64,000 nt of DNA from Burkholderia sp. USMB20 (GTDB lineage Bacteria; Pseudomonadota; Gammaproteobacteria; Burkholderiales; Burkholderiaceae): contig NZ_JTAN02000002.1 of assembly GCF_000949135.2 (NCBI RefSeq), positions 186,001 to 250,000 of the forward strand, given 5' to 3'. Positions within the stretch are counted from its first letter, which is position 1. Each line of letters begins with the position of its first letter. The position numbers and the translations under genes are program-made. The notes under the pieces are model-generated. The model did no database searches. It was not told the origin of the DNA and worked only from the letters and a program-made list of their open reading frames with translations. Positions 28,599-58,273 of the stretch are shown here, in pieces.

Positions 28599-28609
28599 GG
28601 GGACTCCGT

Positions 28610-28653
28610 GGTCGGACGTGGACGAACCATGACGCATCTGCCGACGTCCGACC
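28610..28653 (-). promoter_or_regulatory. 10-bp stem hairpin between riboswitch and leader ORF
   Basis: Arms 28610-28619 (ggtcggacgt) and 28644-28653 (acgtccgacc) pair perfectly around a 24-base loop. It lies downstream of the aptamer and just upstream of the leader ORF's ribosome site in the minus-strand transcript. This is where an expression platform or anti-terminator would be expected. Confidence 0.5.
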
Positions 28654-28671
28654 AGGAACGACGCGATGCGT

Positions 28672-28778
28672 CGATGGTCTCGCCAGACCGATACGGCCGA
28701 ATACGCCACGGCCGCAGGCCGAGTGTGTTGACGCATTCGCTTTCCGGGGATGGAAAGCAGGCTACTCCCCAAAGACGA
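28672..28778 (-). promoter_or_regulatory. yybP-ykoY manganese riboswitch
   Basis: The minus-strand RNA contains the three signature blocks of this aptamer in order: ggggagtagcc (28760-28770), gcgtcaacacactcgg (28719-28734) and ggcgagacc (28676-28684), with pairing segments gctttcc/ggaaagc between the first two. The aptamer binds Mn2+ and turns on exporters. It stands 140 bases upstream of the CaCA exporter, with a hairpin and a small leader ORF in between. The exact ends are approximate. Confidence 0.85.
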
Positions 28779-28921
28779 AGGGCAGTCTAGCCGAGCCGGC
28801 CGCTTTCGGCAAGCGTGTGCGGTCATGCCGCTTCATTCGGGATGGTCAGCCGCCTTCCGACGGACGCACACGCAATTCCAGGAAGCAATCGGTGTGCGCG
28901 CACGGCGGCGTCACGCGCGTG

Positions 28922-45448: not shown

Positions 45449-45768
45449 GCCCCGATATTCGCAGGAAGCCGAAGGGCAGGCGCGAGCTCCCCAGGGACGG
45501 CAGGTTCTGTCGAAGGTTCCGCAGCGATGCGGACCTTCGATTTTTTTTGCCGGTTCGCCGCGCGATGTGTCCTAGCGGATTGTCGTAATCCTTCTATCTG
45601 AACGAATCTGCGTCTGCTGGAATGGCAATGCCGAATCACCGTTCAGCCGGCGTCGCGGGGCGGCATGGTTGTCGACGTCATCGAGCGCCGGTCCGGCGCT
45701 CGACTTCGCGGGTCCGGGCAAGTCCGGCCCACCAGGGTCAATCCATCACTCTCTTTTGATCAATCATC
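45449..45768. other. intergenic region upstream of glyA remnant, with 10-bp hairpin
   Basis: Besides the terminator at 45510-45548, this stretch holds a perfect inverted repeat, tcgagcgccg (45681-45690) and cggcgctcga (45694-45703) with a 3-base loop, about 65 bases before the glyA ATG. It has no T tract, so it is more likely an RNA control element or the remains of one. No gene is seen. Confidence 0.5.
45510..45548 (+). terminator. rho-independent terminator after SDR gene
   Basis: Stem tcgaagg-t-tccgca (45510-45523) pairs with tgcggaccttcga (45528-45540), with one bulged base, and eight T follow (45541-45548). It ends the lactone oxidase/SDR transcript and isolates it from the glyA remnant. 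Confidence 0.85.
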
Positions 45769-46446
45769 ATGTTCAATCGCACTACCAGCACCGTCGCCAA
45801 CGTCGATCCGGAACTCTGGACTGCCATTCAGGACGAGAACCGCCGCCAGGAAGACCACATCGAGCTGATCGCGTCGGAAAACTACACGAGCCCGGCCGTC
45901 ATGGCCGCACAGGGTTCGCAGCTCACGAACAAGTACGCGGAAGGTTATCCCGGCAAGCGCTACTACGGCGGCTGTGAGTACGTCGACGTGGTCGAGCAGC
46001 TGGCTATCGACCGCGTGAAGCAGCTGTTCGGCGCGGAAGCCGCGAACGTGCAGCCGAACTCGGGTTCGCAGGCGAACCAGGGCGTGTTCTTCGCAATGCT
46101 CAAGCCGGGCGACACGATCATGGGGCTGAGCCTCGCGCACGGCGGCCACCTGACGCACGGCTCGCCGGTGAACATGTCGGGCAAGTGGTTCAACGTCGTC
46201 AGCTATGGCCTGAACGAACAGGAAGACATCGACTACGACGCGGCCGAGAAGCTGGCAAACGAACACAAGCCGAAGCTGATCGTCGCGGGCGCATCGGCAT
46301 TCGCGCTGAAGATCGACTTCGAGCGTCTCGCGAAGATCGCGAAGTCGGTCGGCGCATACCTGATGGTCGACATGGCGCACTACGCCGGCCTGATCGCCGC
46401 GGGCGTGTACCCGAACCCGGTGCCGCACGCGGACTTCGTGACGTGA
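45769..46446 (+). pseudogene. glyA: serine hydroxymethyltransferase, 5' half only
   Basis: The first 225 residues are an excellent Gly[17 protein letters not shown] near residue 25, [16 protein letters not shown] near 56 and [17 protein letters not shown] near 205. The reading stops with PHADFVT and a TGA, exactly before the TTTTHKxLRGPRGG segment that carries the PLP lysine, so the product cannot bind cofactor as an internal aldimine. From about 46,443 the DNA belongs to another gene in the opposite direction. A second, complete glyA must exist elsewhere in the genome. Codon quality up to the break is normal, so the event looks recent. Confidence 0.88.
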
Positions 46447-46875
46447 GAACGACGGATCGGGCTTGATGTAATTGTCTGCCAGCAAATCAGGGTTCAGGAA
46501 CCCATCCGGCGTCACACTCTCCGTGTACTTCGCGGGCGTCAGCTGTCCGGCGTCGATACCGTGATACATCATCTGGTCGTCCAGACGCCCGAGCCTGCGG
46601 TTCAGGCCTTTGCACAGCCCTTCCTCCGACGCCTCGAACCATTCGCCCTCCGAGTTCACCCCATGCACGAAGATCACGATACCGGGCAAGGGCATCTGCT
46701 TGAGACAGATGAGCGGCGTGTTCTTCGCAAACATCGTCACGCCTTCGACGCGGCCGACGACGATCGGCGGCGGTGCCGGCCGAGATGCGGGCGCGTCCGG
46801 CGCAGCCGCCTCCGCGACGGGTTCGTCATTGCGCGTTTTCGCTTCCGATCGAGGATCGAAAATTGAATTGGTCAT
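46443..46875 (-). pseudogene. type VI lipase effector (Tle3/DUF3274-like), 5' part only
   Basis: Starting at ATG 46875 (GAGGAG five bases upstream), about 144 residues read as the beginning of a T6SS lipase-effector of the DUF3274/Tle3 kind. A disordered Ala/Pro-rich start is followed by GIVIFVHGVNSEGEWFEASE (about 64-83) and then DDQMMYHGIDAGQLTP and LADNYIKPDPSFS. At that point it fuses into the antisense of glyA, so the serine nucleophile region and the rest are missing. It cannot act as an effector. Tle genes normally stand beside vgrG and an immunity gene; none is recognisable here. Confidence 0.72.
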
Positions 46876-48732: not shown

Positions 48733-48951
48733 ATGACGCAGCAACTCTGGCAACTGTCGGCGACCGAAATCGCGAAGCGCGAGCAGCAACGTGAAGTGTC
48801 CGCGCGGGAAGTGGCGGATGCCGCGCTGGCCCGCCTCGAAGCGGTGAACCCGGCGATCAACGCGGTGGTCGAGCATCGTCCCGACGACGTGCGCCGGCAG
48901 GCCGACGAGGTGGATCGCGCGATTGCCCGCGGCGACGATCCGGACCGCTGA
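48733..48951 (+). pseudogene. amidase (GatA/AtzF-like), N-terminal fragment, 72 codons
   Basis: The frame reads the standard start of an amidase-signature enzyme: LWQLSATEIAKREQQREVSA, then ALARLEAVNPAINAVVEHRP and ADEVDRAIARGDDP. It then runs into a stop (DR, TGA) at the point where the family continues with LAGVPVTVKxN, the catalytic lysine region. GAGGAG precedes the ATG. So only the leading helices remain; the catalytic Ser-Ser-Lys part is absent downstream. A recent 3' deletion is likely. Confidence 0.75.
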
Positions 48952-49370
48952 TGCGGTGACGGGCGTGGTGCGTCGGCGATGCACCGCGCCGGCCGCTTGC
49001 CATTCGCCGATTCATCGAAGCGTGCGCCGTTCGACCCGGCGCACGATTCCATCGCGGATTCCATCACGACGTGCGGCACGCGTCGCATGCGGCATCGTTC
49101 CCGGCTTCGCCGCCGCCGATCCTTTCAAAAAACCTTCGATGCGCGACATCGAACGGCCATCGCTCCCCGTCCTCCGCACGCATCCGCCCCAATTGCGCGC
49201 GTCTGCTATTGCATTTCACGCGCTGCTGATTAGGAAATGAATTTTTATTGGTTCTGCTTCCCCGAGCGCGCTCGCATAGTGGGGCTGACGGCTATAGACA
49301 GCACGCAAGCTGCACCGGCCGCATTCCCGGCATGTTTGATCATACGAAACTGCGAGAACAAGGAAGCGTG
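48952..49370. promoter_or_regulatory. intergenic region with control region of sulfur-compartment operon
   Basis: No gene is seen. The first 200 bases are GC-rich debris after the amidase remnant. From 49,225 the DNA is AT-rich (attaggaaatgaatttttat), as expected for a promoter. The 12-mer tgacggctatag (49286-49297) lies 85 bases before the rhodanese start and recurs at 51084-51095 ahead of the encapsulin gene. Confidence 0.5.
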
Positions 49371-49841
49371 ATGACGTTTGCATTGGAAGAACGAACCGCC
49401 GCCCAGCAGGCGCTCGAAGACGCCCGCGCGGCGGCCGCAGCGGCGGGCACGCCGTACGCGGGCGGCGTGGCGCCGGAAGCCGCGTGGGCGCTCTTTTCCG
49501 CCGGCGACGCGTTGCTGGTCGACGTGCGCACCGCGGAAGAACGGAAATTCGTCGGCCACGTGCCGGAGTCGCTGCACGTGCCGTGGGCGACCGGCACGAG
49601 CCTGACGCGCAACCCGCGCTTCGTGCGCGAACTGGAAGCGAAGACCGGCAAGGACGCGGTCGTGCTGTTGCTCTGCCGCAGCGGCAACCGCTCCGCGCAG
49701 GCAGCCGAGGCCGCGGCCAAAGGCGGCTTCACGCAGGTATTCAACGTGCTCGAAGGGTTCGAGGGCGACCTCGACGAACAGCAGCATCGCGGCGGCAGCA
49801 ACGGCTGGCGCCATCGCGGCCTGCCGTGGGCGCAGGACTGA
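49371..49841 (+). CDS. rhodanese-like sulfurtransferase
   Basis: Single-domain rhodanese of 156 residues. DALLVDVRTAEERKFVGHVP (about 43-62) is the rhodanese entry motif, and the active-site loop CRSGNRSAQAA carries the persulfide-forming Cys near residue 103. It moves sulfane sulfur from a donor such as thiosulfate or a persulfide. Start taken at 49371 because AAGGAAG sits four bases upstream; an ATG at 49332 is in frame. First gene of the operon with epsC, XRE, encapsulin and cysteine desulfurase. A sulfurtransferase beside a sulfur-storing compartment suggests loading or unloading of stored sulfur. Confidence 0.88.
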   Translation: MTFALEERTAAQQALEDARAAAAAAGTPYAGGVAPEAAWALFSAGDALLVDVRTAEERKFVGHVPESLHVPWATGTSLTRNPRFVRELEAKTGKDAVVLLLCRSGNRSAQAAEAAAKGGFTQVFNVLEGFEGDLDEQQHRGGSNGWRHRGLPWAQD

Positions 49842-49869
49842 GTCACGGCCGTTACGGGGAGAAGTCAGC

Positions 49870-50829
49870 ATGGCCGCATTCGATATCGACGACATCGTTC
49901 AGTCGCTCCAGACCGTGCGCCGCGCGTGGCGCGAGAAGCAGCGCCGCTCGCTCGAACCGGGCGGGCGCGACCTGCCGGCGCGCGAGGCGCTCGCACAGAT
50001 CATCGGCGCGCTCAAGGGCGTGCTGTTCCCGATGCGGCTCGGGCCGCCCGACCTGCGGCAGGAGAGCGAGAACTTCTATGTGGCCCACGCGCTCGACGCG
50101 GCGCTGAACGCGCTGCTTGCGCAGGTGACGCTCGAGCTGCGCTACGCGGCGCGGCAACGCAACGCCGACGCGCAGATCGACGAAGCGGCCGCCACGGCCG
50201 TGCAGGCCTTCGCGGCACGCCTGCCCGACATCCGCCGGCTGCTCGACAGCGACGTGCTGGCCGCGTTCCACGGCGATCCGGCGGCGGGCAGCGTCGACGA
50301 AGTGCTGCTGTGCTATCCCGGCATTCTCGCGATGATCCACCACCGGCTCGCGCACGAGCTGTACCGGCTCGGGCTGCCGCTGCTCGCGCGGATCATCGCC
50401 GAGCAGGCGCATGCGGAAACCGGCATCGACATTCACCCGGGCGCGCGGATCGGCGGCGGCTTCTTCATCGACCACGGCACGGGTGTCGTGATCGGCGAGA
50501 CCGCGATCATCGGCGAGCGCGTGCGCGTGTACCAGGCCGTCACGCTCGGCGCGAAGCGCTTCCCGCGCGATGCGGCCGGTCATCTGGAGAAGGGGCTCGC
50601 GCGCCACCCGATCGTCGAGGACGACGTGGTGATCTATGCGGGCGCAACGATCCTCGGCCGCGTGACGATCGGCCGCGGCGCGGTGATCGGCGGCAACGTG
50701 TGGCTCACGCAGGACGTGCCGGCGGGCGCGAACATCACGCAGGCCGTGCTGCGCAGCGAGGCGAATGCCGCGCCGCGCGCGCGGAGCGAGCCGGCCGAGC
50801 CGGTGCCCGACGCACAGGTGACGACATGA
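49870..50829 (+). CDS. epsC: serine O-acetyltransferase (EpsC/SrpH type)
   Basis: Makes O-acetylserine, the carbon skeleton for cysteine, from serine and acetyl-CoA. The protein has 319 residues, with a helical N-terminal domain and a left-handed beta-helix of hexapeptide repeats (TGIDIHPGARIGGGFFIDHG at about 179-198, VVIGETAIIG, AVIGGNVWLTQDVP). Catalytic His residues lie in IHPGA and IDHGTG. It is of the EpsC/SrpH branch, longer than classical CysE. GGGGAGAAG precedes the ATG. The stop overlaps the XRE start (ATGA). In encapsulin operons of family 2A this is the usual partner of the shell and cysteine desulfurase. Confidence 0.9.
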   Translation: MAAFDIDDIVQSLQTVRRAWREKQRRSLEPGGRDLPAREALAQIIGALKGVLFPMRLGPPDLRQESENFYVAHALDAALNALLAQVTLELRYAARQRNADAQIDEAAATAVQAFAARLPDIRRLLDSDVLAAFHGDPAAGSVDEVLLCYPGILAMIHHRLAHELYRLGLPLLARIIAEQAHAETGIDIHPGARIGGGFFIDHGTGVVIGETAIIGERVRVYQAVTLGAKRFPRDAAGHLEKGLARHPIVEDDVVIYAGATILGRVTIGRGAVIGGNVWLTQDVPAGANITQAVLRSEANAAPRARSEPAEPVPDAQVTT

Positions 50830-51047
50830 GCGACCTGATCCAGCACTTCGGCGCCAACGTGCGCAAGCTGCGCGAGGCACGCACGTGGTCGCAGGAGCAG
50901 CTCGCCGAACACGCGGGGCTGAACCGTTCGTACGTCGGCGAGATCGAGCGCGGCGAGGCGATCGCCTCGATCGTCACCGCCGACAAGATCGCGCGCGCGT
51001 TCGACGTGTCGATCTCGACGCTGTTGCCCGGCGTGTCCGTCGCCTGA
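50826..51047 (+). CDS. small XRE-family regulator
   Basis: DNA-binding protein of 73 residues consisting of little more than a lambda-repressor-like HTH (TWSQEQLAEHAGLNRSYVGE, about residues 20-39). It overlaps the epsC stop and is 135 bases before the encapsulin gene. It has no sensor domain, so it may respond to concentration alone or need a partner. It is the likely local regulator of the compartment operon; the repeated 12-mer is a candidate site. Confidence 0.83.
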   Translation: MSDLIQHFGANVRKLREARTWSQEQLAEHAGLNRSYVGEIERGEAIASIVTADKIARAFDVSISTLLPGVSVA

Positions 51048-51083
51048 CGCATTCCGCTTCCTTTCCCGTTCGGTGGTGCCGCG

Positions 51084-51095
51084 TGACGGCTATAG
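51084..51095 (+). promoter_or_regulatory. 12-mer tgacggctatag shared with upstream of rhodanese gene
   Basis: Exact copy of 49286-49297, placed 99 bases before the encapsulin ATG (85 bases in the other copy). In this copy gctatagc is a palindrome. It may be an operator for the XRE or a CysB-type regulator, or part of an internal promoter that allows shell and cargo to be expressed separately from the enzymes. Confidence 0.45.
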
Positions 51096-51182
51096 CATGT
51101 TGAGCCGGCAGGTGCGTGCTTCCGATAATCACCCAGCGTCATAAGCAATCCCGTTTTTCATCTTAAGAACCCGGAGCCACAC

Positions 51183-52115
51183 ATGTCGACCGTTGCAAGC
51201 GGCACGGCCGCGCTGAGCGATCACGCCGCCCGCCAACTAGCGAACGCTACCAAGACCGTCCCGCAGCTTTCCACGATTACGCCGCGCTGGCTGACCCATC
51301 TGCTGCAGTGGGTGCCGGTCGAGGCCGGCATCTATCGCCTGAACCAGGTGAAGAACCCGGAAGCCGTGCGCGCCGCGTGCACGCAGCTCGAGGACGAAAG
51401 CGTGCTGCCGCAGACCTTCGTGCCGTACGAGGAACAGCCGCGCGAGTATTTCCTGAACGCGGTGAGCACGGTGCTCGACGTGCATACGCGGATCTCCGAT
51501 CTCTATAGCAGTCCTCACGACCAGATCAAGGAACAGCTGCGCCTGACGATCGAGACGATCAAGGAACTGCAGGAAAGCCAGCTGATCAACAACCCGGACT
51601 ACGGGCTGCTCGCGAACGTGACCGACGAACAGCGGATTTTCCCGCTGACGGGCGCGCCGACGCCGGACGACCTCGACGAACTGCTGACCAAGGTATGGAA
51701 GGAACCGGCGTTCTTCCTCACGCACCCGCTCGCGATCGCCGCGTTCGGCCGCGAATGCACGCGGCGCGGCGTGCCGCCGCCGACGGTCAGCCTGTTCGGC
51801 TCGCAGTTCCTCACGTGGCGCGGCATTCCGCTGATTCCGTCGGACAAGGTGCCGGTCGCGGACGGCAAGACCAAGATCCTGCTGCTGCGCGTCGGCGACA
51901 AGCGCCAGGGCGTGGTCGGCCTGTATCAGCCGGGCGTCGCGGGCGAGCAGGGGCCGGGCCTGTCGGTGCGCTTCATGGGGATCAACAACCAGGCGATCGC
52001 GTCGTACCTGATCTCGCTGTACTGCTCGCTCGCGGTCCATTCGCCGGATGCGCTGGCTGTCCTCGATGACGTCGAAATCGCCAAGTACCATGACTATCCC
52101 GACACCTACCGTTAA
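51183..52115 (+). CDS. family 2A encapsulin shell protein (SrpI-like)
   Basis: HK97-fold shell protein of 310 residues that self-assembles into a nanocompartment. It matches the SrpI/family 2A type in length and in segments such as ITPRWLTHLLQWVPVEAGIY (about 32-51), EEQPREYFLNAVSTVLDVHT (about 82-101), GRECTRRGVPPPTVSLFGSQ and the C-terminal YLISLYCSLAVHSPDALAVL. Established knowledge: family 2A shells enclose a SufS-like cysteine desulfurase and take part in sulfur storage. Its cargo gene begins inside it (26-base overlap), directly supporting the pairing. GGAG lies 6 bases before the ATG. Confidence 0.93.
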   Translation: MSTVASGTAALSDHAARQLANATKTVPQLSTITPRWLTHLLQWVPVEAGIYRLNQVKNPEAVRAACTQLEDESVLPQTFVPYEEQPREYFLNAVSTVLDVHTRISDLYSSPHDQIKEQLRLTIETIKELQESQLINNPDYGLLANVTDEQRIFPLTGAPTPDDLDELLTKVWKEPAFFLTHPLAIAAFGRECTRRGVPPPTVSLFGSQFLTWRGIPLIPSDKVPVADGKTKILLLRVGDKRQGVVGLYQPGVAGEQGPGLSVRFMGINNQAIASYLISLYCSLAVHSPDALAVLDDVEIAKYHDYPDTYR

Positions 52116-54100
52116 TCCCGGCTCGGCCGGCAGCGACGCGCTCGCGTTGCCGCACGCGCCGCTGCCGGCCGGCCTGCCCGACCCGGCGGCCGGCTCGCGC
52201 GGCTCGCGTCCGGAGTCTTCGCGACGCCGCCCGGGCAGGCCACCGCGCCCGGGCTGTCGGCGGGCAGCGGGGCGGTCGCGGCGTGCCGTCGGCGCTGCCG
52301 GCTGCCGCGCCGATCCTCGCGTCGGTGAGCAATCCGGCGCCGGGGCGCTCGCCGCTCGCGGGGCCGGCGGCACGGGCACCGGGTGCCGGGCCTCCGCGCT
52401 GCCGCAAGGCAAGGCGCCGGCACGAACCTCGCGGCCGTCCGCCGACACACGTGCTGTCGCTCGGCAATCGCGTGCCCGCGCTCGCGCCGCACGCGGCCGC
52501 GCAGAACGGGCTGCCCGACAACGCGGTGTCGATCGCGCCCGCGTTCGAGCCGCGCATCGGCGGCGCGGCGCTCGGCGTGCCGCAGGCGCAGGCGGCGGTG
52601 TCGGAGGGCGCGGTGCAGGCAGCGCCGGCCGCGTCGCCGTTTTACTTCACCGACGGCTCGCGGCAGGGCTGGCAGGCGACGCCGCAGGACATCGTCGTGC
52701 CGTCGAACGGCCTCGCGTCGCCGGAAGCGTTCGGGCTGCCGGGCGACGATGCGCTGCGCGAACTGCTCGCCGTGCAGCGCGACGTGCCGGTGTCGCGCGC
52801 ATCGGGCGGCGAGGTGCCGCGTTACTTCATCGACGATACGCGCGCGGCCGAGCCGCAAGGTCAGTTGTATCGCGGCGCACACCCGCCGTTCGACGTGAAC
52901 GCGATTCGCCGCGATTTCCCGATCCTGCAGGAGCGCGTGAACGGCAAGCAGCTCGTCTGGTTCGACAACGCGGCGACGACGCACAAGCCGCAGGCCGTGA
53001 TCGACCGACTCGCGTATTTCTATGCGCACGAGAACTCGAACATCCACCGCGCGGCGCATGCATTGGCCGGCCGTGCGACGGATGCGTACGAGCATGCGCG
53101 GGAAACGGTGCAGCGCTTCATCGGAGCGTCGTCGCCGGACGAGATCGTGTTCGTGCGCGGCACCACCGAGGCGATCAACCTGATCGCGAAGTCGTGGGGC
53201 GTGCAGAACGTCGGCGAAGGCGACGAGATCATCGTGTCGAACCTCGAGCATCACGCGAACATCGTGCCGTGGCAGCAGCTTGCCGCACTCAAAGGCGCGA
53301 AGCTGCGCGTGATTCCGGTCGACGATTCGGGGCAGGTGCTGCTCGACGAATACCGGAAGCTGCTCAACGACCGCACCAGGATCGTGTCCGTCACGCAGGT
53401 GTCGAACGCGCTCGGCACGGTCGTGCCGGTGAAGGAGATCGTCGAACTCGCGCATCGCGCGGGCGCGAAGGCGCTGGTCGACGGTGCGCAGTCGATCTCG
53501 CACATGCGCGTCGACGTGCAGGCGCTCGATGCGGACTTCTTCGTGTTCTCCGGGCACAAGATCTACGGGCCGACCGGGATCGGCGTCGTGTACGGCAAGC
53601 GCGCGATCCTCGACGACATGCCGCCCTGGCAGGGCGGCGGCAACATGATCGCGGACGTGACGTTCGAGCGCACGGTGTTCCAGCCGCCGCCGAACCGCTT
53701 CGAGGCCGGCACCGGCAACATCGCGGATGCGGTGGGGCTCGGCGCGGCGCTCGACTACGTGAGCCGCGTCGGCATCGAGAACATCGCGCGTTACGAGCAC
53801 GACCTGCTCGCGTATGCGACGAGCGTGCTCGCGCCGGTGCCGGGCGTGCGGCTCGTCGGCACCGCGCGCGACAAGGCGAGCGTGCTGTCGTTCGTGCTGA
53901 AGGGCTATGAGACCGAGGAAGTCGGGCAGGCGCTGAACGAAGAGGGCATCGCGGTGCGCTCCGGGCATCACTGCGCGCAGCCGATCCTGCGGCGCTTCGG
54001 GCTCGAGGCGACGGTGCGGCCGTCGCTGGCGTTCTACAACACGTGCGATGAGGTCGATGCGCTCGTGAGCGTCGTGAGAAGGCTGGCGGCACGGCGCTGA
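52090..54100 (+). CDS. encapsulin cargo: SufS-like cysteine desulfurase with long N-terminal targeting extension (apparent frameshifts)
   Basis: PLP enzyme that takes sulfur from cysteine, here the cargo of the encapsulin. The catalytic part (about 52,880-54,100) is complete: LVWFDNAATTHKPQAVID, the PLP lysine in FVFSGHKIYGPTG and the persulfide Cys in RSGHHCAQPI, i.e. the SufS/CsdA class. It is preceded by an Ala/Pro/Gly-rich extension of about 220 residues, the compartment-targeting domain, including the conserved-looking THVLSLGNRVPAL and FYFTDGSRQGWQATPQD. The ATG at 52090 (MTIPTPTV) lies inside the shell gene. Between 52,185 and 52,440 the extension is legible only by shifting frame five times, each as if one base were lost, so either the loading domain is broken or the consensus is wrong. 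The last long frame opens at a GTG at 52283. Confidence 0.85.
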
Positions 54101-54119
54101 GGCGCGCGGCATGCGGAAA

Positions 54120-54166
54120 GGCCGCTTGCGACTCCCGGCAACGGGGCGTCGCAAGCGGCCTTTTTT
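54120..54166. terminator. strong terminator after the compartment operon
   Basis: A 13-bp perfect stem (54120-54132 with 54148-54160) is followed by six T. On the opposite strand a shorter T run follows, so it may also serve the convergent LysE gene. Confidence 0.88.
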
Positions 54167-54193
54167 CGTGGCGATGCGGCAGCGCGACGGCGC

Positions 54194-56328: not shown

Positions 56329-58273
<1,945 letters not shown>

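What the first reader, a model, noticed from the sequence alone, without database searches (positions are those of the whole stretch)
49286..54166. Sulfur nanocompartment operon: rhodanese, EpsC, XRE, family 2A encapsulin and cysteine desulfurase cargo
Seen: five same-strand genes with short gaps or overlaps, ending in a strong terminator. The shell protein matches the SrpI-type family 2A encapsulin and the last gene is a SufS-class cysteine desulfurase with a long disordered N-terminal extension. Known: family 2A shells load such desulfurases through that extension and have been linked to sulfur storage. Inference: rhodanese may load or retrieve sulfane sulfur, EpsC supplies O-acetylserine for cysteine resynthesis, and the tiny XRE protein may gate the operon. 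The five-gene set with an embedded regulator is a complete, self-contained sulfur-bank cassette in a Burkholderia-like genome.
Basis: partly seen in the sequence, partly recalled or inferred. Interest (0 to 1): 0.85.

Follow-up and report, generated by a model that had tools for sequence, protein, structure and literature searches.

The report
Sulfur nanocompartment with restriction-type gene switch
A Burkholderia gene set for a known kind of protein shell that handles sulfur carries its own tiny regulator, which resembles the timing switch of DNA-restriction systems and is predicted to act on two matching DNA sites that are rare elsewhere in these genomes.

Summary
The five genes are real: rhodanese, EpsC-type serine acetyltransferase, a 73-residue XRE protein, a family 2A encapsulin shell and its SufS-type cysteine desulfurase cargo. 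Four are intact. The cargo's N-terminal region, which loads it into the shell, is frame-disrupted in this sequence; 133 of 134 loci examined, all but the window, have it open. A sequence error in 83% G+C DNA is likeliest. The metabolic set is published, so "sulfur-bank cassette" is not new.

New here is the control layer. The XRE's closest solved relatives are restriction-modification controller (C) proteins, and it travels with the cassette. A 12-base element, TGACGGCTATAG, lies at the rhodanese promoter and at a separate shell promoter, and is rare elsewhere. Its core precedes the shell in 79 of 79 XRE-bearing loci of one scan and in 0 of 16 usable XRE-less loci. In one genome the cassette is split and both halves keep the element. 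Its TATA centre resembles C-protein operators. Best reading: a domesticated C-protein-like regulator acts on both promoters. Binding and direction are inferred, not shown.

The parts
49245..49254 (+). conserved upstream element TTATTGGTTC of the rhodanese promoter; similar TTATTCGTT/TTATTGGTT stretches are seen ahead of some XRE-less cassettes; candidate activator box (factor unknown)
49275..49280 (+). putative -10 (CATAGT) of the rhodanese promoter
   Evidence: conserved as CATnnT 5-7 bases before the operator in 88 of 92 distinct promoters; assignment as -10 is inference
49286..49297 (+). predicted operator 1, TGACGGCTATAG, just downstream of the putative -10
49371..49841 (+). rhodanese, 156 aa, active-site loop CRSGNRS (motif role recalled)
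   Evidence: PF00581; PDB 8w14 at 3e-56
49870..50829 (+). EpsC-type serine O-acetyltransferase, 319 aa
   Evidence: NF041874 above cutoff; PDB 3f1x at 4e-79
50826..51047 (+). 73-aa XRE regulator, C-protein-like; start overlaps the epsC stop (ATGA)
51084..51095 (+). predicted operator 2, TGACGGCTATAG, abutting the shell promoter
51100..51129 (+). shell promoter: TTGAGC, 18 bases, GATAAT
51140..51151 (+). conserved leader element CATAAGCAATCC of the shell transcript, role unknown
51183..52115 (+). family 2A encapsulin shell protein, 310 aa
52090..52450 (+). start and N-terminal (shell-targeting) region of the cargo; reading frame disrupted in this sequence, intact in relatives
52283..54100 (+). 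ORF holding the rest of the extension and the SufS-type cysteine desulfurase domain
   Evidence: NF041166 927 bits; PDB 8kg1 at 1.4e-196 for the catalytic part
54112..54170 (+). intrinsic terminator hairpin with T run

Best explanation
This is a family 2A encapsulin cassette (shell that sequesters a cysteine desulfurase, with a rhodanese and a serine acetyltransferase as accessory enzymes) that in Burkholderia and close genera carries its own dedicated regulator. The regulator is a tiny XRE protein of the restriction-modification controller (C-protein) type. It most likely binds as a dimer to the element TGAyGGC-TATA-GnC at two promoters. At the rhodanese-EpsC-XRE promoter the site lies just downstream of the putative -10, so binding should repress or block the transcript that encodes the XRE itself. 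At the shell-cargo promoter CTATAG ends 4 bases before the -35, its centre about 43 bases before the predicted start, a place where small XRE proteins can activate (recalled). Gene identities are shown by sequence; site conservation and its link to the XRE are shown by comparison; binding, dimer, direction and the signal are inferred.
For: Shell and cargo pass curated models. Order rhodanese-EpsC-XRE-shell in 30 of 30 shell-bearing genus genomes, cargo following in the 27 whose fetched DNA reaches it. XRE: best PDB profile hits C.BclI 4e-17 and C.AhdI 8e-17; AlphaFold model pLDDT 90.4 with C.AhdI and C.BclI chains as the first five Foldseek rows; PADLOC Control_protein 2.3e-17. XRE orthologue in 5 of 5 shell-bearing genus genomes tested (E <= 1.6e-28); best match 5.4e-9 in the 7 of 7 genus genomes without the shell. 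TGACGGCTATAG: 87 sites in 45 of 61 genus genomes, 76 of them same-strand pairs about 1.8 kb apart in 38 genomes; reversed-pattern control 33 sites (my count). CTATAG upstream of the shell: 31 of 31 genus cassettes including the window, 23 of 23 XRE-bearing family loci, 79 of 79 of the GTDB scan (sets overlap); 0 of 16 usable XRE-less loci. It is the only 6-mer in at least half of both promoter sets (48 shell, 49 rhodanese upstreams). CTATAG to -35 spacing is 4 in 100 of 100 distinct promoters where both were found. In the split cassette of G219 both halves keep the site while the XRE lies on another contig. C.Esp1396I operators: GAC and GTC boxes around TATA with an outer TG (passage).
Against: No binding or expression data. 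XRE-bearing cassettes are mostly one clade, so the counts are not independent. Dyad symmetry of the site is weak beyond GCTATAGC. The residue I place opposite C.Esp1396I R46 is Ala; that register is my inference. Site 1 lacks the exact core in 4 of 22 family and 8 of 80 GTDB-scan rhodanese promoters. C-protein similarity may reflect the general small-XRE fold: SinR and others also match. Of 340 XRE relatives found only the best 80 were seen. CTATAG by itself occurs a third time in the window, at 51503 inside the shell gene. The cargo frame is broken in the window itself.
Confidence: 0.72

Rival explanations
1. The conserved element is bound by another factor (for example a sulfur-responsive LysR-type activator) and the XRE acts elsewhere or is a bystander.
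For: A different conserved box (TTATTGGTTC at the rhodanese promoter) and a leader box (CATAAGC) also exist, so more than one factor is likely.
Against: The element goes with the XRE and is missing upstream of the shell in 16 of 16 usable XRE-less loci; its 12-base form is nearly confined to this cassette in the genus, unlike what I would expect of a global sulfur regulator; it has the TATA-centred form described for C-protein sites.
Confidence: 0.2
2. In this strain the cargo gene is a decayed pseudogene, so the shell would not be loaded and the cassette is losing its function.
For: Frame disrupted in the targeting region, with several window-specific length differences; 133 of 134 loci have an in-frame start and only the window does not.
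Against: The disrupted stretch is 82.7% G+C against 68% for the window, where sequencing and assembly errors are common (recalled); the rest of the cargo ORF is open for 605 codons with a 927-bit family match, and the four other genes are intact.
Confidence: 0.2
3. An ordinary family 2A operon, one transcript, with the XRE as a minor autoregulator.
For: Same-strand genes and a terminator at the end; rhodanese and acetyltransferase are known partners.
Against: A conserved promoter-like sequence lies before the shell, and shell plus cargo stand apart from the other three genes with that sequence in G219.
Confidence: 0.15

Closest known systems
Family 2A encapsulin SrpI with cysteine desulfurase CyD, Synechococcus elongatus (PMC8049743, abstract and passages)
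   Same: Shell of the same family (6x8m, 5e-146); cargo desulfurase with an N-terminal extension bearing LARLANEFFS-like and AASPYYFLDG-like motifs (117 of 134 loci match my regular expression for the first)
   Different: Here the set adds rhodanese, EpsC and an XRE regulator; the window's own extension is frame-disrupted
Shell 8t6r (PDB molecule name 'Major membrane protein I'; recalled as the Acinetobacter baumannii sulfur-storing encapsulin of a 2024 paper not held in the library)
   Same: Closest solved shell, 7e-169 over residues 8-310
   Different: Its operon was not examined here
Family 2A operons with serine acetyltransferase and rhodanese (PMC8346489, passages)
   Same: Same accessory genes; B. 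cepacia named as a carrier
   Different: No XRE regulator or operator is mentioned in the passages seen; the rest of the text and the supplement were not read
Restriction-modification controller proteins C.AhdI, C.BclI, C.Esp1396I
   Same: Size, single HTH domain, fold (C.AhdI and C.BclI rows: TM about 0.8, 37-45% identity), recognition-helix residues R-S/T-Y, TATA-centred operator
   Different: Encoded between epsC and the shell gene, not with a restriction endonuclease; operator boxes are GGC/GnC rather than GAC/GTC; the two sites are 1.8 kb apart at two promoters rather than in tandem

Membership tests
Family 2A encapsulin shell | Match to the curated 2A model and SrpI-like domain | tested here: met
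   NF041162 526 bits, cutoff 380; PF19307 335 bits
Family 2A encapsulin shell | No N-terminal cNMP-binding domain (which marks 2B) | tested here: met
   310 aa protein with no such Pfam match; the 2B model also passes its cutoff (412 vs 400), but its best stretch covers only profile positions 217-449 of 450
Family 2A encapsulin shell | HK97 fold | tested here: inconclusive
   Model failed, pLDDT 35; near-full-length homology to solved shells
Family 2A cargo desulfurase | SufS-type catalytic domain | tested here: met
   TIGR01979 562 bits, cutoff 475; NF041166 927 bits, cutoff 800
Family 2A cargo desulfurase | In-frame N-terminal targeting extension next to the shell gene | tested here: not met
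   Disrupted in the window, in-frame start in 133 of 134 loci; whether error or decay is not settled
Family 2A cargo desulfurase | Physical encapsulation | not testable with these tools
   Needs purification
Restriction-modification C protein | Small single-domain XRE/HTH protein closest to known C proteins | tested here: met
Restriction-modification C protein | Encoded with restriction endonuclease and methyltransferase genes | tested here: not met
   Flanked by epsC and the shell in 30 of 30 genus relatives; 79 of the 80 best orthologues lie within 5 kb of a shell; 10 flanking ORFs of the window gave no restriction or methylase family. So it is not filed as an R-M C protein, only as C-protein-like
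Restriction-modification C protein | Cognate operator with GAC/GTC boxes around a TATA spacer | tested here: inconclusive
   TATA centre and outer TG present, boxes differ

The most novel reading that the evidence does not exclude
A restriction-modification controller protein has been domesticated to time the building of a metabolic nanocompartment: the same tiny dimer blocks the rhodanese-EpsC-XRE transcript just after its start and switches on the shell-cargo promoter from the -43 position, so that the accessory enzymes come first and the desulfurase compartment follows after a delay, as C proteins delay the endonuclease behind the methylase.
Probability: 0.3. Interest if true: 0.75.

Novelty: new variant of a known kind. 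Interest (0 to 1): 0.5.

Why it matters
I found no account of how family 2A compartments are switched on in this group of bacteria. Here a single candidate regulator, its predicted 12-base site at two promoters and a natural split cassette make that directly testable. If confirmed, it would be a case of a restriction-modification type switch reused for metabolism, next to a shell that is itself regarded as virus-derived.

Tried and rejected
Structure prediction of the shell gave pLDDT 35 from a shallow 15-row alignment; not used. A TTATTGGTT-ATAGTG promoter pattern was tried as a route to a wider sulfur regulon: one site in each of 8 of 10 genomes. I take these for the cassette promoter, because strands and coordinates agree with operator 1; the two genomes without a site also lack the shell. 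So no regulon was seen with that strict pattern. A third TGACGGCTATAG site in G014, G017 and G024 is one shared place that appears to lie inside a gene read on the other strand, so it is not counted as an operator; the second site of G077, 1.19 Mb from its cassette site, was not looked at. The promoter/terminator scan missed the real terminator because of its loop limit. Rfam found nothing in the cassette at gathering thresholds. PHROGs gave only weak shell matches and generic regulators. PADLOC DndA/SspA matches of the cargo are taken as cross-matches of the desulfurase fold. An XRE-as-antitoxin reading (Y4mF-type antitoxin model below its cutoff) was set aside because C proteins match better; a toxin partner was not searched for.

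Rows dropped: L144 (contig starts inside the shell gene) and L248 (2B-like, shell matched in two pieces) were dropped from the XRE-less count, leaving L059, L060, L136-L143, L145 and L243-L247 (16); L131 was counted apart because its genome holds the XRE elsewhere. The 99-base piece of G235 was not fetched. Absence of the XRE in these 16 means absence from the fetched stretch; genome-wide it was checked for 4 of the 8 shell-bearing g48 genomes (best profile E 1.4e-14 against 3e-39 in G219). The GTDB scan found 340 XRE relatives, of which only the best 80 were given. Loci of the GTDB scan and of the held genomes overlap, so their counts must not be added. The nearest-relative comparison used 31 of those 80 loci. 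No claim of absence from print goes beyond the listings of these searches: 'encapsulin' with 'Burkholderia' (10 listed; one read in passages), 'XRE' (1, not opened), 'helix-turn-helix' (4, not opened) and 'controller protein' (0).
Full report
What is there. The window lies in a Burkholderia-like genome: its own assembly is not held and the nearest held genome shares 20% of sampled words. Over rhodanese to shell, the best of 31 named loci compared are Burkholderia sp. Bp9143 (96.5%, L156) and B. ambifaria (95.8%, L159). On the + strand lie rhodanese 49371-49841, EpsC-type serine acetyltransferase 49870-50829, a 73-aa XRE protein 50826-51047, a family 2A encapsulin shell 51183-52115 and a SufS-type desulfurase ORF 52283-54100, then a strong terminator. 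Gaps are 28 bases, an ATGA overlap, 135 bases, and a 26-base overlap between the shell stop and the family start codon of the cargo at 52090.

The cargo frame. The start at 52090 is out of frame with the catalytic domain. In 29 of 29 relatives with the region the frame is open from a start that overlaps the shell stop, 27 at the same place and 2 (L059, L060) at 14 bases (L055 runs off its contig). In one search, 133 of 134 loci (overlapping sets, window included) have an in-frame start near the shell stop and the window is the one that does not. The disruption lies between about 52180 and 52450, where G+C is about 83% (82.7% for 52180-52450). It falls in the part that carries LARLANEFFS, one of two motifs reported as conserved in the loading region (PMC8049743, passages); the other, AASPYYFLDG, appears as AASPFYFTDG in the open ORF. 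I think sequence error is more likely than decay, but only reads can tell. Intact copies exist in relatives; nothing was restored.

What is already known. [quoted passage not shown] cepacia and another Burkholderia species as carriers. The abstract and passages of PMC8049743 describe the shell, its cargo and its rise under sulfate starvation. Storage of elemental sulfur by such shells I recall from a 2024 paper not held in the library; I saw only that other papers contain a phrase of its title. So the metabolic cassette is a new member of a known kind. The EpsC here looks like an extra copy: 4 of 4 shell-bearing genomes tested hold three matches, 2 of 2 shell-less ones two.

Conservation. The shell is in 30 of 37 genus genomes (32 of 61 genomes in all). 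All 30 have the order rhodanese-EpsC-XRE-shell, and the cargo follows in the 27 whose fetched DNA reaches it. In the family draw 49 of 200 genomes have the shell, in the class draw 7 of 369, G001 included. I fetched 34 loci for the 32 family genomes outside the genus: 23 carry the XRE beside the shell and 11 do not.

The regulator. A profile of 12 XRE orthologues matches C.BclI (4e-17) and C.AhdI (8e-17) best among solved chains. A confident model (pLDDT 90.4) gives C.AhdI and C.BclI chains as the first five Foldseek rows, with C.Esp1396I from row 10. PADLOC Control_protein scores 2.3e-17. The recognition helix reads NRSYVGEIERG; C.AhdI has DRSYVGGVERG and C.BclI HRTYISEVERG; R34 and Y36 are invariant in the 12. 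NCBIfam gave only models below their cutoffs, and SinR-type proteins also match, so this is 'C-protein-like', not a filed C protein: its neighbours are epsC and the shell, and 10 flanking ORFs of the window gave no restriction or methylase family. Of the 80 best orthologues in GTDB contigs (340 found), 79 lie within 5 kb of a shell. The exception, L216 on a Caballeronia glebae contig of 181,231 bases, appears to be the G219 contig of the same length on which the XRE trio stands apart from the shell. In the genus, 5 of 5 shell-bearing genomes tested have the orthologue and none of the 7 shell-less ones does (best 5.4e-9).

The predicted operator. Aligning 31 cassettes showed the same 12 bases, TGACGGCTATAG, upstream of the rhodanese (49286-49297) and upstream of the shell (51084-51095), with small changes in some. 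In 61 genus genomes this 12-mer occurs 87 times in 45 genomes, 76 of these as a pair about 1.8 kb apart in 38 genomes, against 33 for the reversed control (counted by me). Around the shell promoter CTATAG is followed after exactly 4 bases by TTG- (the -35) in 100 of 100 distinct promoters where both were found, with GATAAT or CATAAT 17-18 bases on in 97. At the rhodanese promoter the element lies 5-7 bases after CATnnT in 88 of 92. CTATAG is upstream of the shell in every XRE-bearing locus examined (31, 23 and 79 in overlapping sets), and is the only 6-mer in half or more of both promoter sets (48 and 49 sequences). It is absent from 16 of 16 usable XRE-less loci. In G219 shell and cargo stand apart from rhodanese-EpsC-XRE, which are on another contig; both promoters keep the element and the XRE scores 3e-39 there. 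Not every rhodanese promoter has the exact core: 4 of 22 and 8 of 80 lack it; three of the four have an altered form such as CTAAAG.

Reading of the mechanism. C.Esp1396I recognises GAC and GTC boxes around TATA plus an outer TG (passage of PMC3758141). The footprint here, TG-Ay-GGC-TATA-GnC, has a similar plan with other boxes. It was found before the C-protein link was known. In published systems a C protein at a distal site activates and at a proximal site represses, and C.Kpn2I acts as a roadblock from within its own gene (abstract and passages of PMC6237814). By position, CTATAG of site 1 (about +6 to +11 of a start set 7 bases after the putative -10) should block or repress, and that of site 2 (centre about -43) could activate or, by touching the -35, repress; that small XRE dimers can activate from there is recalled knowledge. 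The fixed 4-base spacing at site 2 and the looser 5-7 at site 1 fit activation and blocking, but do not prove them. The signal is unknown; it may be no more than the regulator's own level, as I recall for C proteins.

Verdict. Confidence in the gene identities is high; in the XRE acting on the two sites about 0.72; in the activation-plus-roadblock switch about 0.3.

Noticed in passing
window 28606-28782, minus strand: Manganese riboswitch (yybP-ykoY, RF00080, 70.3 bits, gathering 45).
   Followed up: no
window 48733-48951, plus strand: A 72-codon ORF with a weak match, below cutoff, to the first 41 positions of the Amidase model (PF01425, 19.7 bits); perhaps a gene remnant.
   Followed up: partly
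window 56329-58035, minus strand: A chaperonin gene of the GroEL kind (PF00118, 278 bits) close to the cassette; not tested for any link to shell folding.
   Followed up: no
window 45760-46875, minus strand: ORF with a partial match to the Tle3 family (PF24322, positions 1-54 of 321); described only.
   Followed up: no
L117, L118, L119 (one genome, G188): Three family 2A shells in one genome, all with an XRE beside them, the third without a rhodanese match.
   Followed up: partly
L223: A metagenome bin labelled Rhodoferax carries the XRE-bearing cassette with the core element at the shell promoter: transfer or misbinning.
   Followed up: no
window 51140-51151 and relatives: A second conserved box (CATAAGC-like) in the shell leader, after the -10, has no explanation; several relatives also have another CTATAG just before the ribosome-binding site.
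   Followed up: partly
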